This document shows positions 30,979 through 36,976 of a stretch of DNA of 36,976 nt, piece after piece. Below the pieces are notes generated by a model. That model had not been told where the DNA came from and made no database searches. It was given only the letters and a program-made list of their open reading frames with translations. This DNA is from Clostridia bacterium. GTDB taxonomy: Bacteria > Bacillota > Clostridia > Oscillospirales > CAG-272. Position numbers and translations under genes: made by a program. The stretch is from contig JAFVWS010000046.1 in assembly GCA_017501545.1 (NCBI GenBank), positions 1 to 36,976 on the forward strand. The letters run 5' to 3'. The stretch's first letter is position 1, and every line of letters begins with the position of its first letter.

Positions 30979-31671
30979 TTATTCGCTCACATCAATTGGC
31001 ACAATGCTTGAAATAATCTTTTCAAGCTCTTCTAAGGAAACACTATCATGGCAATTAATGCTAAAAATGTATTCGCTATCACTCCAAATAGCAAAGTATG
31101 AATTATGTTTGTGCTTATAATATATTGTTTTTCCATTACTTACAAGTGTATGATATTCAGCCTCATTATCCAAGTATATGACAGCATTTTGCAGCTTTGT
31201 TTGTGATAAGGTAATTCCATGTTCACCATTATTCCAATACGTATTAATCAGCGCGGGATGATTTTTAGATATGGTTTTTATATACCCCTTTGGCACATAG
31301 CTTGCTACAAATTCTTGCATTGGCTCTTCCAAATTTTCCTTGTTGTAGTCTCCATTTGATGTTATGAGTATATGGTCCTCGTAAATACTTATCTCATAAA
31401 TATTTATAAAAAAGTTTCTTATCGCATCACTTGCTGAAATAGAAACAATAAGCAATATTGATATAATAGCCGCCACCAAAATTAGAATAAAACGCTTGCC
31501 CAATCCAGTTTTCCTTTTTTCTTTAAATCCATCGGCAAGCTCTCTTACAAAATTATCTACCCTTTCAGAATTGACAATATTTTCGGCAGGAAGAGACTCA
31601 ATATACCTAAGCTCCATCAATTGCGCATCGTATAGAGCACTTTTCAATATTTTTGCTTGATTAATTGTCAT
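30979..31671 (-). CDS. DUF4367 membrane protein, likely anti-sigma factor
   Basis: Single-pass membrane protein of 230 residues. The cytoplasmic N-terminus (1-58, helical, LMELRYIESLPAEN) is the expected sigma-binding part. One membrane helix lies at about 60-80 (FILILVAAIISILLIVSISA), followed by an exported DUF4367 domain (about 110-225) with the family phrase YVPKGY and beta strands (NAVIYLDNE, KTIYYKHKHNSYFAIW, YIFSINC). Genes of this type sit immediately after ECF sigma genes and hold the sigma inactive until an outside signal. Here it overlaps the sigma gene by 4 bases (ATGA). The signal is unknown. A family-context inference, not a direct motif. Confidence 0.8.
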   Translation of the reverse strand: MTINQAKILKSALYDAQLMELRYIESLPAENIVNSERVDNFVRELADGFKEKRKTGLGKRFILILVAAIISILLIVSISASDAIRNFFINIYEISIYEDHILITSNGDYNKENLEEPMQEFVASYVPKGYIKTISKNHPALINTYWNNGEHGITLSQTKLQNAVIYLDNEAEYHTLVSNGKTIYYKHKHNSYFAIWSDSEYIFSINCHDSVSLEELEKIISSIVPIDVSE

Positions 31672-32210
31672 TTTATATTCAACTCCTTGAATTTTTCTTT
31701 AACTAAATCCTTGCCTCGCTTTAACTGCGTTTGCACGGTGCCAAGTGGCTTATCAAGCGCACCTGCTATTTCCTTGGCGGAAAGTCCTACAACGTAGTTA
31801 AGTATTAAAACGTCTCTATATTTTTCATCCATATTTAAAATAAATTTGATTATGTGGTTATACTCATCCTTGCTTATGTATTCCTCTTGCAAATTATCAT
31901 TCTCAGATAAAGAATACTGTGTACTAATATCATAAGAGAAAAATCGGTTTTCTTTTTTTGAAACCTCAATTCCCGCACTTTTTGCAATCTTAGAGATATA
32001 TGTTTTTTGTTGCGTTTCATCTAAGCCTGATATTTTTTCAACGTATTTTGCAATTCTATAAAAGGTAATCTGTGTTGCATCCTCAGCTAAATGATAGTTT
32101 TTTGTTATCTTAACGCAAATAGCAAAAATTATACCCTTGTATTTTTCATAAATTTCAATAAATTTATTTTTGTTATTTTCATCTTCAATTAATGACAAGA
32201 AAATAAGCAT
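31668..32210 (-). CDS. ECF-type RNA polymerase sigma factor
   Basis: Sigma factor of 180 residues with region 2 (NKNKFIEIYEKYKGIIFAICVKITKNYHLAEDATQITFYRIAKYVEKI) and region 4 (LNMDEKYRDVLILNYVVGLSAKEIAGALDKPLGTVQTQLKRGKDLVKEKFKEL), but no region 1 or 3. An open frame extends to 32243, but GAGG before the ATG at 32210 decides the start. Its sigma-A promoter is listed. The target genes are unknown; the exported genes transcribed in the opposite direction are natural candidates. Confidence 0.9.
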   Translation of the reverse strand: MLIFLSLIEDENNKNKFIEIYEKYKGIIFAICVKITKNYHLAEDATQITFYRIAKYVEKISGLDETQQKTYISKIAKSAGIEVSKKENRFFSYDISTQYSLSENDNLQEEYISKDEYNHIIKFILNMDEKYRDVLILNYVVGLSAKEIAGALDKPLGTVQTQLKRGKDLVKEKFKELNIK

Positions 32211-32243
32211 ATCAAAGCACCTCATAATAAGTTGTTCAATCAA

Positions 32244-32310: not shown

Positions 32311-32340
32311 TTGACCCAATTTTGAAATTATAAGTGTTAT
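32311..32340 (+). promoter_or_regulatory. Possible promoter of exported-protein genes
   Basis: TTGACC (32311-32316), an 18 bp spacer and TGTTAT (32335-32340) lie upstream of the secreted protein. The -10 is weak. An ECF-dependent promoter could be in the same stretch, but no clear CGTC-type -10 was found. Confidence 0.35.
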
Positions 32341-32378
32341 TTATAGTGAGAGCAAAAAATGGAAAAGGAGGTGAAAAT

Positions 32379-32792
32379 ATGAAAAAGACATTAGCAGTTG
32401 CGCTTGCACTGGTTTTCTGCATAGTATTAGTTGCACCAACATTTGCTTTAGATACAAGGGTGACACCACGCTATAACAATGTAGATTCAGTAACACCAAG
32501 ATTTTACATAGCAAGCAATGGCGATTCAGTTGTTACTGTTTCTTATCAAGGCTTTGAAGGCATAACAACAAAAGCAACAATTACAACAGTAATTCAAAAG
32601 AAAACTATGTGGTGGTGGAGCGATGTTGATAATACCGATTGGGTTATCGAAATAACCGAGCCATCTGGAGAAGTAGAGCACAGAATCAATCTCAAAAATA
32701 GTGGCACATACCGCTTGGTTTATGAGGTGAGAATTGAAGGTACAGGCGGCGCCACAGAGGTAATATCAGGCGAAATAGAAGATAGCTTCTAA
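32379..32792 (+). CDS. Small secreted beta-rich protein
   Basis: Exported protein of 137 residues. Residues 1-23 are a signal peptide (KKTLAVALALVFCIVLVAPTFA). The mature part is strand-rich, with alternating polar and hydrophobic residues (SVVTVSYQGFEGITTKATITTVIQKKT, TYRLVYEVRI) and a WWW cluster at about 77-79. TPRYNNVDSVTPRFYI resembles a group of small secreted clostridial proteins that I know only as uncharacterised. AAAGGAGGTGA lies 5 bases before this ATG, a near-perfect ribosome site, and overrides the longer frame from 32334. First gene of the exported module, and probably highly translated. Confidence 0.82.
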   Translation: MKKTLAVALALVFCIVLVAPTFALDTRVTPRYNNVDSVTPRFYIASNGDSVVTVSYQGFEGITTKATITTVIQKKTMWWWSDVDNTDWVIEITEPSGEVEHRINLKNSGTYRLVYEVRIEGTGGATEVISGEIEDSF

Positions 32793-32858: not shown

Positions 32859-35800
32859 ATGAAAAACAAAAAGCTTTCTACTAAAATATTATCGTTCATA
32901 ATGACATTTTTAGTGCTGGCTATATCCTTGCCAATATATGCATTTGCATCGGCAATAGATACAAAAGCAGAGAACAAAGAAACAATAGAAGAAACAATAA
33001 ATTCAGCACAGGCTATCAGTGATGAGCTATATGTGTTAGAGGAAGATGTCACCTTGCGAGAAGAAAACGCAAAGCACTTTAAGCTTTCTGATGGTACAAT
33101 GAAGGCAGTATCCTATGCACAAGCAGTCCACTACAAGGACGAAAATGGCAACTGGATAGACATTGACAACTCCTTGACTCTTAGTGGCAGTGAATATGCC
33201 ACAAGCAATAAGCAAGAAATCAAATTTTCTAACAAATCAGGCTCAAATGGCTTGATTAGTATTAAGGACGGCGAATATAAAATAGATTTTACCCCACTTA
33301 ATACCAATAAAGTAAGTGTGGAAATAGAAAACCCAGAGGGAAATAATAGTAGAAAATTTGACGACGTAAAAAAGCTAAATAAGCTTGTCTCAAAAGCTAC
33401 GTACAAGGACATATATAGCGGTATCGACCTTGAATATATTCTTGTGGGTAATAACATAAAAGAAAATATAATAGTAAAAGAAAAGCAAAGTGAATATAGC
33501 TTTTCCTTTGAAATAAAGCTAAGCAAATTAAATGCAGAGCTTGAAAACAATGCGATAGTATTAACCGATAGCGAAACTGGCGAAAAGGTGTATGAAATCC
33601 CAGCACCATATATGCTTGATGCAAACGGAGAATATAGCGACAGCGTAGAATATACCCTAACCAAGGACAGTAAGTGGAAATACACCCTGACAGTGGTGGC
33701 AGACCCAAGCTGGATAAACGCCGAGGAAAGAGAATTCCCAGTAAAAATCGACCCGACTGTAACAACGGGAAGCATTACAAAAGAGCTTTTTGTTATGGAA
33801 GACGGCGTATACGATAATTTACCATCTTTAATTATCGGAAACTTTATGGGATTTTATTATGATGCTACTGGCTTTATAAAGTTTGATGCCTTGACAGGAA
33901 TCGAGGAAGATACTATTTTGTTAGATGCAAAGCTTCTACTACATGTTCCTTATATAGAAAATCAAACAGGTAGAGATTTTAATGTAGGTGTATATAAAGC
34001 AAAGAGTGATTGGTACACTGGAACATATAATATTAATCATAGTAATAAATCGGAGTATTTTTACCCAACATTAGTAGATGAAAAAACCATGACAGAAACT
34101 GGCGTATATAGTTGGGACATTACGGGTATGTATAAAGAATGGCTTGCTAACTCAGGGTCTAATCATGGTGTTTGTATAAAAGGCATAGATTTACCAACTG
34201 AAAATGACACAACCGTTTCAAGCGAAATAGCTAATATACGAGTAACAACTACTTTAAATACAGATGGATATATGGTCCCAACCATTGAATTGTCGTATAG
34301 ATATTTGGTAGGTGTTGAGGACTACTATGCGTATGCAGAAAATACACTTGGTGACGTTGGTAAAAGCTATGTTAATTTATATAATGGTTCGCTTACCTAT
34401 ATAAATAAACTTACTAGCATAGAGGTAGGCGAAAATTTGACATATGATATTAATATGGTGTATAATTCAATTGATAAAGCATGGACACCAAGCTTCTACG
34501 AAAATGTAGAACCATACACCGCTTTAGGAGTGGAACAATATATTTGGACGGATGAAGATGGAACAAAGCACCTCTTTACACCTCATTTAGAAAAGAACTT
34601 TTTTGGTGCATATGCTACATATGAGCTTTCTCCAACAGAAAAATGGCCGATAAATGACCCAACAATCTTTTATCCAGAAGATGATATTGATTATGTCTTA
34701 GTTCAAACTACAAATAACGAATTGATTTTAAGAGATTATCAAGGTAACCAAAAAATGTTTGATGCTAATGGCAGACTCTCAAGGATTTGTGATGCACAGG
34801 GGAATGTGATTTATATTAATAATCATTTAGGTGAGAATAATATAGCAACCATACATGTTGAGAGTAGTACACAAGATATTATATTCTTGGCAGAAATGAG
34901 ATATAATTCAAATGGAAAGTTGTGCTATATTTATGATGTGCAAAATGAAAAGGAACTCGATATTTTTTGGAATGGGAATTACATAAATTACATTTCATAT
35001 CATAATTATGGCGAAACAACGAGTTACAAAAAAATAGTTTTTGAATATGATGAAAATAATACAAACTTGGAATATGTTTTTGATAATTCAATAAATCAAA
35101 AGATGCATTATTACATTGATGAAAAAGAGGATGAAGACGCTCCTAATGATGAAACAATCATTGAAAGTATTAATATCAATGGAACAGAGGAGGAAATAAC
35201 AAAAAAATATATCGTTGGTAAAGGTTTTTATAAAGATTTAGGTCAAGATCTTACAGAAAATACAAATGATGATTTCTCAGAATATGTTACTTTTGACGAA
35301 AAAGGAAGAGAAATCATAAAAGGCCATACATATAATGATGAACTTAGGCCTGATACTATATATTTTAGCATACTATACAATCCAAAAATATATATCGAAT
35401 CTTTCAATGCCTTTAGATATAATATAGAGACTGGTTTTAGAGAGTATATAACTGTGAACAGGCAGGGAGAAGCCTTGGATATTTCAAATGTAACAACAAC
35501 GAATACAGGCAGAACTTATAAACTCATAGAAAACACACAAAATGCCCCGTACAACATGGTTTGCAAAGTTAAAGTGTATTATGATGGAAGTTCTACTCCT
35601 AAAGAAAGCACAGCATTTTTAACTGGATCAAACACGTTGATAATGTCTGCTCATGGTCTTTTAAAGCCGAATGGAGTAGCTGGCATATATGGGTGGGAGT
35701 TCCCTACAAAAGCAGAGATTATACCTGGATGCTATATAAAAAACGGGGAAGAGCAAACTCCATTTGGTACTTATGATATTACAGAGTTTTATATTCAAAA

Positions 35801-36212
35801 AGAATACTATTATCTTCGTGATACAACTTTAACAGAGAAATATCAGTATGACTGGGCGGTTTGTGTTTTGGATGAAAATGTTGATGAAAGACTTGGATAT
35901 TTCACATTAACGATACCGGATGATAATTTGAATGACAAACCTGTTCAGGTGATTGGATATCGCGAAAAAGTTAGTAATAGCGACATGAAAATACATATGT
36001 ATTATTCAAGAGGAAAAATACAAGCATACCAGAAAACCATAGATTACAATGCATTAACCGCTCAGGGAATGAGTGGCGGACCTCTGTTACTCTATAATAC
36101 CAACTGCGTCATAGGGATACATGTATATGGAGGAGAAAATGTTATTATTGCTGGTGCAAAAAAAATAGACTCATTAATTTATTCTTTAGTAGATAATTTA
36201 AACTCAACTTGA
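32859..36212 (+). CDS. Secreted WapA-like protein with C-terminal trypsin-like protease
   Basis: Exported protein of 1117 residues. Signal peptide at 1-31. Residues about 50-300 match the N-terminal region of clostridial WapA/RHS-type proteins (AVHYKDENGNWIDIDNSL, YKDIYSGIDLEYIL, EYTLTKDSKWKYTLTVVADPSW). A DNRLRE domain is at about 300-480 and a vestigial YD-type repeat at about 621-655 (DYQGNQKMFDANGRLSRICDAQGNV), with no long RHS array. Residues about 900-1110 form a chymotrypsin/V8-like serine protease. The triad is visible: His932 (SAHGLL), Asp998 (YDWAVCVL) and Ser1072 (GMSGGPLL), with GIHVYG after it. So a processing, toxin or nutrient protease sits where RHS-toxin relatives carry a nuclease. 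DNA becomes more AT-rich after about 33780, suggesting a mosaic gene. AAGGAG precedes the ATG. Confidence 0.85.
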   Translation: MKNKKLSTKILSFIMTFLVLAISLPIYAFASAIDTKAENKETIEETINSAQAISDELYVLEEDVTLREENAKHFKLSDGTMKAVSYAQAVHYKDENGNWIDIDNSLTLSGSEYATSNKQEIKFSNKSGSNGLISIKDGEYKIDFTPLNTNKVSVEIENPEGNNSRKFDDVKKLNKLVSKATYKDIYSGIDLEYILVGNNIKENIIVKEKQSEYSFSFEIKLSKLNAELENNAIVLTDSETGEKVYEIPAPYMLDANGEYSDSVEYTLTKDSKWKYTLTVVADPSWINAEEREFPVKIDPTVTTGSITKELFVMEDGVYDNLPSLIIGNFMGFYYDATGFIKFDALTGIEEDTILLDAKLLLHVPYIENQTGRDFNVGVYKAKSDWYTGTYNINHSNKSEYFYPTLVDEKTMTETGVYSWDITGMYKEWLANSGSNHGVCIKGIDLPTENDTTVSSEIANIRVTTTLNTDGYMVPTIELSYRYLVGVEDYYAYAENTLGDVGKSYVNLYNGSLTYINKLTSIEVGENLTYDINMVYNSIDKAWTPSFYENVEPYTALGVEQYIWTDEDGTKHLFTPHLEKNFFGAYATYELSPTEKWPINDPTIFYPEDDIDYVLVQTTNNELILRDYQGNQKMFDANGRLSRICDAQGNVIYINNHLGENNIATIHVESSTQDIIFLAEMRYNSNGKLCYIYDVQNEKELDIFWNGNYINYISYHNYGETTSYKKIVFEYDENNTNLEYVFDNSINQKMHYYIDEKEDEDAPNDETIIESININGTEEEITKKYIVGKGFYKDLGQDLTENTNDDFSEYVTFDEKGREIIKGHTYNDELRPDTIYFSILYNPKIYIESFNAFRYNIETGFREYITVNRQGEALDISNVTTTNTGRTYKLIENTQNAPYNMVCKVKVYYDGSSTPKESTAFLTGSNTLIMSAHGLLKPNGVAGIYGWEFPTKAEIIPGCYIKNGEEQTPFGTYDITEFYIQKEYYYLRDTTLTEKYQYDWAVCVLDENVDERLGYFTLTIPDDNLNDKPVQVIGYREKVSNSDMKIHMYYSRGKIQAYQKTIDYNALTAQGMSGGPLLLYNTNCVIGIHVYGGENVIIAGAKKIDSLIYSLVDNLNST

Positions 36213-36226
36213 TAGGAGGAAAATTT

Positions 36227-36976
36227 ATGAAAAAACTACTTTCAATAATGCTTGTTTCTTTAATGCTAACAGCACTATTAGCATCGTGTAGCAAACCAGT
36301 AAATATCGACACAAGTACTGATACTATTACAGAATCAAAAAATAATAATGAGGATTCGATAATTGACACAAATATAGGTGACGAAACAACCGGTGAAACA
36401 AGCACAGATGACATTAATGAAGGTGGATATAATCAAACTGAACAAAAAATTACGTTCGACCTTGGTCCTCATCTTCCATTAGTAGAATTTGACTATGATT
36501 ATTCTTCTACTTTACAAAAATATGGCAAAATAGGCTATACTAAAAGCGGGATTCCATATATAGAATATGCTCCAAATTGTTTTAGTTATTTTGTGCTTGT
36601 AAGTTGTAAAGAAGATACAACGTATGCTTTTGAGCTTTTTGAAGAGATGATAGCCTTAGGTGAATATGAAATATACATTGACATAGACGTCTTTGAGCCA
36701 GCAGAAAATAAGGCTCTGATTGTGTTTCCAAGCTTTACTGCTTATAGCGCAATTCAAAAGAACCTTTTAGAAGGATTGTCAGCTCTTGAGAGTGTTGAAA
36801 AAATTAAGGTTGGTTATATAGATACAAGCGACAGTAATGAGAAGCAAAAAGGATACGACTTTTATACAGAATTTCAAACAATTGATGAAGAAAGCAAGTT
36901 TATAACATCACACGAAGAGCTTATAAATCTGTTTGACATGACAAATGAGAAAAATGCGCAAATAACACAAATAACA
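36227..36976 (+). CDS. Lipoprotein, cut by window end
   Basis: The frame starts at an ATG with AGGAGG 7 bases upstream, 14 bases after the protease stop, and stays open for 250 codons to the last base. Residues 1-21 are a lipoprotein signal with lipobox LASC (Cys21). A Ser/Thr/Asp/Asn-rich linker runs to about residue 75, then a folded domain (FDLGPHLPLVEFDYDYSSTLQKYG, YIEYAPNCFSYFVLVSC, EYEIYIDIDVFEPAENKALIVFP). I do not recognise the family. The position directly after the protease suggests a partner, inhibitor or immunity protein, but this is inference. Confidence 0.85.
   Translation, partial: MKKLLSIMLVSLMLTALLASCSKPVNIDTSTDTITESKNNNEDSIIDTNIGDETTGETSTDDINEGGYNQTEQKITFDLGPHLPLVEFDYDYSSTLQKYGKIGYTKSGIPYIEYAPNCFSYFVLVSCKEDTTYAFELFEEMIALGEYEIYIDIDVFEPAENKALIVFPSFTAYSAIQKNLLEGLSALESVEKIKVGYIDTSDSNEKQKGYDFYTEFQTIDEESKFITSHEELINLFDMTNEKNAQITQIT

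What the first reader, a model, noticed from the sequence alone, without database searches (positions are those of the whole stretch)
32859..36212. WapA/RHS-type exported protein whose toxin end is a serine protease
Seen: signal peptide, WapA-like N-terminal region, DNRLRE domain, one decayed YD repeat, then a complete His932/Asp998/Ser1072 triad with GMSGGP. Known: polymorphic RHS/WapA proteins carry a shared N-terminus with swapped C-terminal toxins, usually nucleases or deaminases after a long RHS shell. Inference: this could be a protease effector that has dispensed with the RHS cage, or a wall-linked degradative enzyme. A shift to more AT-rich DNA near 33780 fits a conserved N-terminus joined to a variable rest.
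Basis: partly seen in the sequence, partly recalled or inferred. Interest (0 to 1): 0.72.

Follow-up and report, generated by a model that had tools for sequence, protein, structure and literature searches.

The report
Cage-less RHS-type protease with surface inhibitor
A gut bacterium encodes an exported protein that shares its front end with bacterial 'caged toxin' proteins but ends in a V8-like protein-cutting enzyme, directly followed by a membrane-anchored protein that probably shields the producer; relatives swap in other secreted enzymes in the same way.

Summary
ORF 32859-36212 encodes 1117 residues: signal peptide, shared N-module, DNRLRE domain, a stretch homologous to the first ~340 residues of RHS shells, then an S1 protease (H932/D998/S1072) whose nearest solved relatives are glutamyl endopeptidases. 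No RHS core is detected. Identity to relatives falls sharply near residue 305: two genes of one genome are 85-93% alike over residues 81-280 and mostly under 30% after 320; one ends in the protease, the other is a full RHS protein. Of 32 cage-less relatives, 24 show other or similar hydrolases (11 over Pfam cut-offs), and the next gene, where one of immunity size follows, looks exported, usually a lipoprotein (23 of 23; caged 26 of 40). Downstream families track C-terminal families (5 of 5 homologous pairs; 0 of 20000 permutations). The protease gene is followed after 14 nt by a lipoprotein gene, and the genome holds orphan relatives of lipoproteins found beside two related proteases. Best reading: a cage-less WapA/RHS-type polymorphic effector acting outside the target membrane, with a surface immunity lipoprotein, probably under an ECF sigma/anti-sigma pair. 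Protease class is near certain; antagonism and immunity are inferred. New variant of a known kind.

The parts
30979..31671 (-). DUF4367 membrane protein, probable anti-sigma factor
   Evidence: Pfam DUF4367 E 2e-13, one TM segment; homologues beside sigma genes upstream of L077, L079, L058
31668..32243 (-). ECF-type sigma-70 factor, divergent from the effector operon
   Evidence: Pfam Sigma70_r2 and r4_2; homologues in the same place at L077, L079, L058
32379..32792 (+). small secreted protein (ORF opens at GTG 32334; ATG at 32379), accessory of unknown role
   Evidence: homologues directly upstream of the big gene at L077, L079, L060, L058, caged and uncaged alike
32859..36212 (+). cage-less RHS/WapA-type effector, 1117 aa
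32859..32951 (+). signal peptide (residues 1-31, approximate)
   Evidence: sequence; hydrophobic segment from residue 6
32994..33758 (+). constant N-module (residues 46-300), weak DUF7948 match
33807..34214 (+). DNRLRE domain (residues 317-452)
   Evidence: NF033679 E 4.5e-14, only match in the genome; the model does not reach L077 or L142
34308..35318 (+). remnant of the start of an RHS shell (residues 484-820)
   Evidence: blastp to long RHS relatives
35499..36209 (+). S1 serine protease of the glutamyl endopeptidase type (residues 881-1117)
35652..35654 (+). catalytic His932
35850..35852 (+). catalytic Asp998
36072..36074 (+). catalytic Ser1072 (GMSGGP)
36057..36059 (+). Thr1067, S1-pocket position five before the serine; conserved in L077 and L142
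   Evidence: role recalled from V8 protease
36120..36122 (+). His1088, S1-pocket position (His in L077, Asn in L142)
   Evidence: role recalled from V8 protease
36214..36219 (+). AGGAGG ribosome-binding site in the 14-nt gap
   Evidence: sequence printed
36227..36976 (+). lipoprotein gene, candidate immunity protein; cut by the contig end after 250 codons
   Evidence: lipobox ALLASC; relative in G176, 38% over 186 residues, E 2e-35

Best explanation
It is a secreted polymorphic effector of the WapA/RHS kind that has lost the cage. Shown: N-module shared with caged relatives, DNRLRE domain, beginning of an RHS shell, and a complete S1 protease of the glutamyl endopeptidase group at the extreme C-end, followed after 14 nt by a lipoprotein gene. 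Inferred: the protein leaves by the Sec route, the DNRLRE and shell parts hold it at a cell surface, the protease cuts surface or wall proteins of competitors after Glu (or Asp), and the lipoprotein on the producer's outer membrane face binds the protease and spares the producer and its kin. No cage is needed because the enzyme acts outside the target membrane and need not be carried across it. Expression is probably set by the divergent ECF sigma/anti-sigma pair.
For: Protease class; triad conserved in L077 and L142. Swap near residue 305: N 72% identical to L077 and, over the 69 residues held, L142; the rest 32-43%; L077 and L079 of one genome 85-93% per 40-residue block in 81-280 (78% in 41-80, 50% in 281-320), then under 30% in most blocks. 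Cage-less relatives carry other hydrolases. Adjacent gene exported in 23 of 23 cage-less cases (17 lipoproteins, one of them by eye) against 26 of 40 caged, Fisher p 0.001; strict lipobox 16 of 23 against 29 of 317 background gene pairs. Downstream family follows C-terminal family: 5 of 5 homologous downstream pairs also have homologous C-ends, 0 of 20000 permutations reach this. Orphan relatives of the L077 lipoprotein (52%) and the L142 lipoprotein (26%, E 3e-19) lie elsewhere in the window's own genome, in which only one N-module gene was found.
Against: No activity, secretion or killing has been measured. The window's lipoprotein is cut by the contig end and shows no convincing homology to those of L077 and L142; the covariation is shown for other classes, not for the serine-protease class. 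Of the 34 pairs with homologous C-ends, 29 have no detectably homologous downstream genes. Stand-alone proteases of this type (4 loci) are also followed by exported or lipoprotein genes in 3 of 4, so the pair may be simple self-protection of any secreted protease. 16 of 40 caged genes also have a lipoprotein next to them. The DNRLRE model does not reach L077 or L142. The fold model is weak (mean pLDDT 53.8, pTM 0.60). L142 is cut at its 5' end.
Confidence: 0.62

Rival explanations
1. A secreted digestive or surface-maturation protease: the N-module, DNRLRE and shell parts tether a glutamyl endopeptidase to the producer's own surface or to feed particles, and the lipoprotein is a receptor, chaperone or safety inhibitor.
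For: Stand-alone glutamyl-endopeptidase-like genes in the same family also have exported neighbours in 3 of 4 loci; DNRLRE-region CBM96 matches of relatives suggest carbohydrate binding; many named relatives are ruminant gut MAGs.
Against: Patchy distribution (protease in 4 of 196 family genomes), swapped C-ends on one N-module, downstream genes that change family with the C-end, and orphan lipoprotein copies fit conflict better than digestion.
Confidence: 0.22
2. The protease is a releasing or processing enzyme, as HINT, caspase-like and papain-like domains are in other polymorphic toxins, not the toxin itself.
For: Releasing peptidases are common in polymorphic toxins (passages of PMC3482391).
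Against: Nothing follows it: the catalytic domain reaches the C-terminus in the window and in L077 and L142, and the next gene is a separate lipoprotein.
Confidence: 0.06
3. A decayed RHS gene whose cage was lost by deletion and whose C-end is a chance fusion, no longer functional.
For: Only the first part of the shell is left and no YD/RHS model reaches the protein.
Against: Two homologues in other genomes keep the same layout at 33-43% protease identity with the whole triad; the frame is open over 1117 codons.
Confidence: 0.05

Closest known systems
WapA/RHS polymorphic toxins of Gram-positive bacteria (e.g. Streptococcus suis WapA-CT1, PMC12704120, passages seen)
   Same: Exported protein with a DNRLRE domain in a conserved N-region, variable C-terminal toxin, adjacent immunity gene, further toxin/immunity pairs downstream
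   Different: WapA-CT1 also has LysM, DUF6531 and two Rhs domains, none of which was hit here; toxin here is an S1 protease; immunity candidate is a lipoprotein
TslA/TilA of Staphylococcus aureus (PMC10730906, passages seen)
   Same: Secreted hydrolase acting outside the cell, neutralised by an immunity lipoprotein, with clusters of lipoprotein paralogues in the genome
   Different: TslA is a phospholipase secreted by the T7SS with a reversed domain order; no RHS-related N-module
VgrG2b C-terminal metallopeptidase with envelope-located immunity (PMC6899460, passages seen)
   Same: Antibacterial protease effector whose immunity protein sits outside the cytoplasm, predicted to be a lipoprotein in Enterobacteriaceae
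   Different: Gram-negative T6SS spike effector, metallopeptidase
Glutamyl endopeptidases and Spl proteases (1p3c, V8, SplA-F)
   Same: Same S1 protease group by sequence profile and triad
   Different: Those are single-domain secreted enzymes (recalled); here the domain is the last of a 1117-residue multidomain protein
Streptomyces umbrella toxins, UmbA (PMC11062931, passages seen)
   Same: Trypsin-like domain and lectins in an interbacterial weapon
   Different: The UmbA trypsin-like domain lacks catalytic activity and serves as an adaptor
Imm65 with Tox-JAB-1 (PMC3482391, passages seen)
   Same: Lipoprotein as immunity protein
   Different: Described there as the only lipoprotein immunity protein in that 2012 collection; different toxin

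Membership tests
S1 glutamyl endopeptidase-type serine proteases | His-Asp-Ser triad in the family context with GxSGxP | tested here: met
   H932, D998, S1072; aligned with L077, L142 and 1p3c
S1 glutamyl endopeptidase-type serine proteases | Double beta-barrel fold | tested here: inconclusive
   The 50 listed of 1031 PDB fold matches are S1-type proteases by title, best 1p3c, E 1.7e-7, TM 0.50-0.55, rmsd 8.1, but model mean pLDDT is 53.8
S1 glutamyl endopeptidase-type serine proteases | Cleavage after Glu (S1-pocket Thr and His, recalled) | not testable with these tools
   T1067 and H1088 present; His is Asn in L142
WapA/RHS polymorphic toxins | Export signal and conserved N-region with variable C-end | tested here: met
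   export signal from sequence only
WapA/RHS polymorphic toxins | YD-repeat shell closed by the RHS core | tested here: not met
   No YD/RHS model hit in window, L077 or L142; only the first ~340 shell residues are homologous
WapA/RHS polymorphic toxins | C-terminal catalytic toxin domain | tested here: inconclusive
   Catalytic domain at the extreme C-end is shown; toxicity is not testable here
WapA/RHS polymorphic toxins | Cognate immunity gene directly downstream | tested here: inconclusive
   Adjacent lipoprotein gene; covariation 5 of 5 pairs across the family, but not shown for the serine-protease class itself
DNRLRE-type surface domains | Profile match over the curated cut-off | tested here: met
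   NF033679, 52.9 bits against a cut-off of 34

The most novel reading that the evidence does not exclude
Polymorphic RHS/WapA effectors of gut Clostridia split into two branches on one secretion module: caged ones carrying mostly toxins for the inside of the cell, and cage-less ones carrying extracellular hydrolases (serine, papain-like, caspase-like, metzincin and M23 peptidases, lipases) often joined to carbohydrate-binding domains, each with an exported, mostly lipoprotein, immunity partner. The cage is kept only where the payload has to be carried across the membrane. The window's protein is a transitional form that still holds the beginning of the shell.
Probability: 0.45. Interest if true: 0.75.

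Novelty: new variant of a known kind. Interest (0 to 1): 0.62.

Why it matters
If true, it makes a question about RHS proteins testable: what the cage is for. Natural pairs with nearly the same N-module, one caged and one not, occur in one genome (L077 and L079). It would also add a chymotrypsin-type protease to the payloads of polymorphic toxins (the held text of the 2012 survey PMC3482391 contains neither 'trypsin' nor 'chymotrypsin'; it does discuss a possible serine peptidase of another kind and subtilisins) and show that lipoprotein immunity, called exceptional there, is common in this family, as expected for weapons that act outside the membrane.

Tried and rejected
A housekeeping protein: rejected, since the N-module is in 61 of 196 family genomes and 73 of 394 order genomes and the protease in 4 of 196.

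Wall anchoring: no LysM, SLH or sortase domain among the Pfam and NCBIfam hits of the window protein.

Base-composition boundary: change point at 33807 not better than 84 of 500 codon shuffles.

Homology between the window's lipoprotein and those of L077 and L142: pairwise scores were reached by 113 (L077-L142), 484 (L077-window) and 26 (L142-window) of 500 shuffles; a four-row profile found one further own-genome lipoprotein (E 0.0024) but the G176 relative of the window's only at E 0.4. A blastp hit between the window's and L142's lipoproteins (E 0.003) covers mainly the leader. I saw a shared pattern by eye and do not claim it.

Single-sequence fold of the protease: mean pLDDT 40.9, useless. 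Scan of viral contigs with the protease profile: 139 pattern matches, none confirmed.

Sampling: I fetched the surroundings of 36 N-module places (20 of them because their frames were short) and 20 (14 chosen as short), not all that those calls listed, plus the 80 loci; the ratio of caged to cage-less is therefore not a natural frequency. Rows dropped from the tally: genes open at the 3' end and duplicates were left out before the 80; of these 80, four fragments (L103, L105, L113, L123), L155 (masked stretch) and L189 (1410 aa with repeats) were dropped, leaving 42 caged and 32 cage-less; the window itself is not among the 32. 'No adjacent gene' (9 cage-less, 2 caged) includes two cage-less cases, L190 and L055, whose next ORF is a large soluble one (489 and 555 aa) that my rule did not count as immunity-sized; counting both as soluble would give 23 to 2 instead of 23 to 0. 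One lipoprotein (L046) was called by eye. Genes were called by a longest-ORF script, lipoboxes by a pattern (some calls, such as L144, are doubtful), TM segments by hydropathy, cage status by two sequence patterns. The background uses genes of 100 aa or more in L077-L156; the tally uses 70 aa or more.
Full report
What is there. The ORF at 32859-36212 is intact and 1117 codons long, with H932, D998 and S1072 in MSAHG, YDWAV and GMSGGP. Residues 317-452 are a DNRLRE domain (NCBIfam E 4.5e-14). Residues 881-1117 find glutamyl endopeptidase 1p3c in the PDB by sequence (E 1.2e-8); with the two homologues as a profile E is 4.6e-13 and the other hits are V8, glutamyl endopeptidase, Spl, Jep and exfoliative-type entries and others named serine protease. 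A three-sequence AlphaFold model is of low confidence (pLDDT 53.8, pTM 0.60), but its best PDB match is again 1p3c, and the 50 listed of 1031 matches are S1-type proteases by title (TMq 0.39-0.50, rmsd 7.7-10.8). Thr1067 and His1088 sit where V8-type enzymes hold the Glu side chain (recalled; positions), so Glu specificity is predicted; L142 has Asn at the His position.

A constant front and a swapped rest. The N-module was found in 61 of 196 genomes of the family and, as a profile, in 73 of 394 genomes of the order, once in the window's own genome. A scan of GTDB contigs gave 89 confirmed relatives among 164 pattern matches, 80 kept; most titles name Clostridia, Clostridiales or Oscillospiraceae, many from ruminant guts. 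Contig G027:C1, same genus as the window, has the length of SVSE01000004.1 (Oscillospiraceae SIG661), so the window is probably from such a bacterium. Two relatives share the layout with the protease at the end: L077 (isolate SIG635) and L142 (RGIG5375, 5' end cut). Identity to the window is 72% in the N-module (only 69 residues held for L142) but 32-33% in the DNRLRE region, 40-43% in the middle and 33-43% in the protease. The DNRLRE model itself does not reach L077 or L142. L077 and L079 come from one genome: per 40-residue block of L077, 78% identical in 41-80, 85-93% in 81-280, 50% in 281-320, then under 30% in most blocks; L077 ends in the protease, L079 is a full RHS protein with YD repeats and core.

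The cage is gone. Residues 484-820 are homologous to the first part of the shell of long relatives (E 2e-35 to L156, 9e-29 to L083, 3e-25 to L084). Neither YD-repeat nor RHS-core models hit the window, L077 or L142, while caged relatives L156 and L079 are hit by both. The window protein thus looks like an RHS protein cut short early in the shell and capped with a protease.

A wider cage-less class. From two genome searches (part of the matches, short frames preferred) and the contig scan I collected 80 non-redundant N-module genes complete at the 3' end: 42 caged, 32 cage-less, 6 dropped (listed in Tried and rejected). I scanned 29 of the 32 cage-less against Pfam (not L052, L193 and the second gene of L116; 15 of the 29 only over their last 299-667 residues). 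Eleven of 32 have a C-end over a Pfam cut-off for a peptidase or lipase: Trypsin_2 (L077, L142), C70 (L041), C39_2 (L101), Reprolysin_5 (L042), M10 (L124), M23 (L194, L197, L050), LCAT (L106), Lipase_3 (L125). A further 13 have weaker support: CHAT below cut-off (L038, L096, L104) or homology to such a C-end (L046), HExxH tails (L039, L040, L043, L044, L195, L200), homology to L041 or L125 (L193, second gene of L116), weak LCAT (L056). Eight of 32 are unassigned (L047, L048, L052, L054, L055, L190, L192, L199). At least 14 of the 29 scanned have a ricin-type lectin domain over cut-off; the window does not.

The next gene. In 23 of 32 cage-less genes a same-strand gene of immunity size follows within 150 nt: 16 have a lipobox, one more by eye, six have TM or signal segments, none is soluble. 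In 40 of 42 caged genes one follows: 16 lipobox, 10 TM, 14 soluble. Exported against soluble, Fisher p 0.001; lipobox share cage-less against caged, p 0.036. Background for a lipobox in the next same-strand gene, from the loci, is 29 of 317. The five caged genes with an HExxH tail all have a lipobox by pattern in the next gene. Among 63 effector-neighbour pairs (window included) only five pairs of neighbours are detectably homologous, and all five belong to effectors with homologous C-ends (34 of 1953 pairs are such); 0 of 20000 permutations within cage class reach five, the most being four. For these five pairs 11, 97, 107, 871 and 1153 of the 1953 pairs have more similar N-modules, so shared ancestry of the whole locus does not explain most of them. 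This is the pattern expected of effector and immunity genes. The other 29 pairs with homologous C-ends have no detectably homologous neighbours, among them the serine-protease class: the lipoproteins of window, L077 and L142 are not convincingly alike pairwise.

The window's own partner. The effector's TGA (36210-36212) is followed by AGGAGG and, after 14 nt, the ATG of a lipoprotein gene (36227, lipobox ALLASC) that runs off the contig. Its nearest relative found is a 570-residue lipoprotein of G176, same genus (38% over 186 residues). Behind it on C24 lie two more lipoprotein genes, one 52% identical to the lipoprotein that follows the L077 protease; on C20 lies a relative of the L142 lipoprotein (26%, E 3e-19), with no N-module gene in the 7 kb read around it. 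One N-module gene was found in the genome, which is 93.87% complete. Orphan or extra immunity genes are described for S. suis WapA loci and for TilA in S. aureus (passages of PMC12704120, and PMC10730906).

Regulation. A DUF4367 anti-sigma-like gene and an ECF sigma gene run divergently upstream, and a small secreted protein gene lies just before the effector. The same set in the same order precedes L077, L079 and L058; L060 has the full set on one strand, L125 has it about 3 kb before its big gene, and L153 and L192 have parts of it. It occurs with caged and cage-less genes alike.

Against. Three of four stand-alone proteases of this type are also followed by exported or lipoprotein genes (L073, L074, L075 yes, L072 no), so self-protection of an ordinary secreted protease is a live rival. 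Lipoproteins also follow 16 of 40 caged genes. No function has been measured.

Literature seen. Zhang et al. 2012 (PMC3482391, passages; first 300,000 characters held) lists 23 peptidase clades among polymorphic toxins, has no occurrence of 'trypsin' or 'chymotrypsin' in the held text, and calls Imm65 the only immunity protein of the collection that appears to be a lipoprotein. PMC6899460 (passages) gives a protease effector with envelope-located immunity; PMC11062931 (passages) gives trypsin-like domains in toxin particles that lack catalytic activity. Searches for a glutamyl endopeptidase with interbacterial and immunity, an Rhs serine protease effector, WapA with an immunity lipoprotein, polymorphic toxin with trypsin-like, or DNRLRE with serine protease listed no report of this arrangement (listings only apart from the papers named; open-access papers only).

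Noticed in passing
30979-32243: ECF sigma and DUF4367 anti-sigma-like pair divergent from the effector operon, conserved upstream of caged and cage-less relatives
   Followed up: partly
32334-32792: Small secreted protein gene conserved just upstream of the effector in the nearest relatives; weak filamin-type Ig match only
   Followed up: partly
L228 (G000:C24) 1-2268: Contig starts inside a reading frame like the C-end of the G176 relative of the window's lipoprotein, then two more lipoprotein genes with the same leader; may be the continuation of the window
   Followed up: partly
L229 3973-5022, L230 2956-3993, L228 302-1366 and 1363-2268: Several lipoproteins of the same genome share an almost identical leader with different bodies, as if bodies were swapped behind one leader
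   Followed up: no
L073 938-4764: In a same-genus genome a stand-alone protease of the same type follows a sigma-like gene and a TM-protein gene and precedes an exported 480-residue protein
   Followed up: no
L068, L084, L120, L132, L144: Caged RHS relatives with HExxH tails, all five with a lipobox by pattern in the next gene
   Followed up: partly
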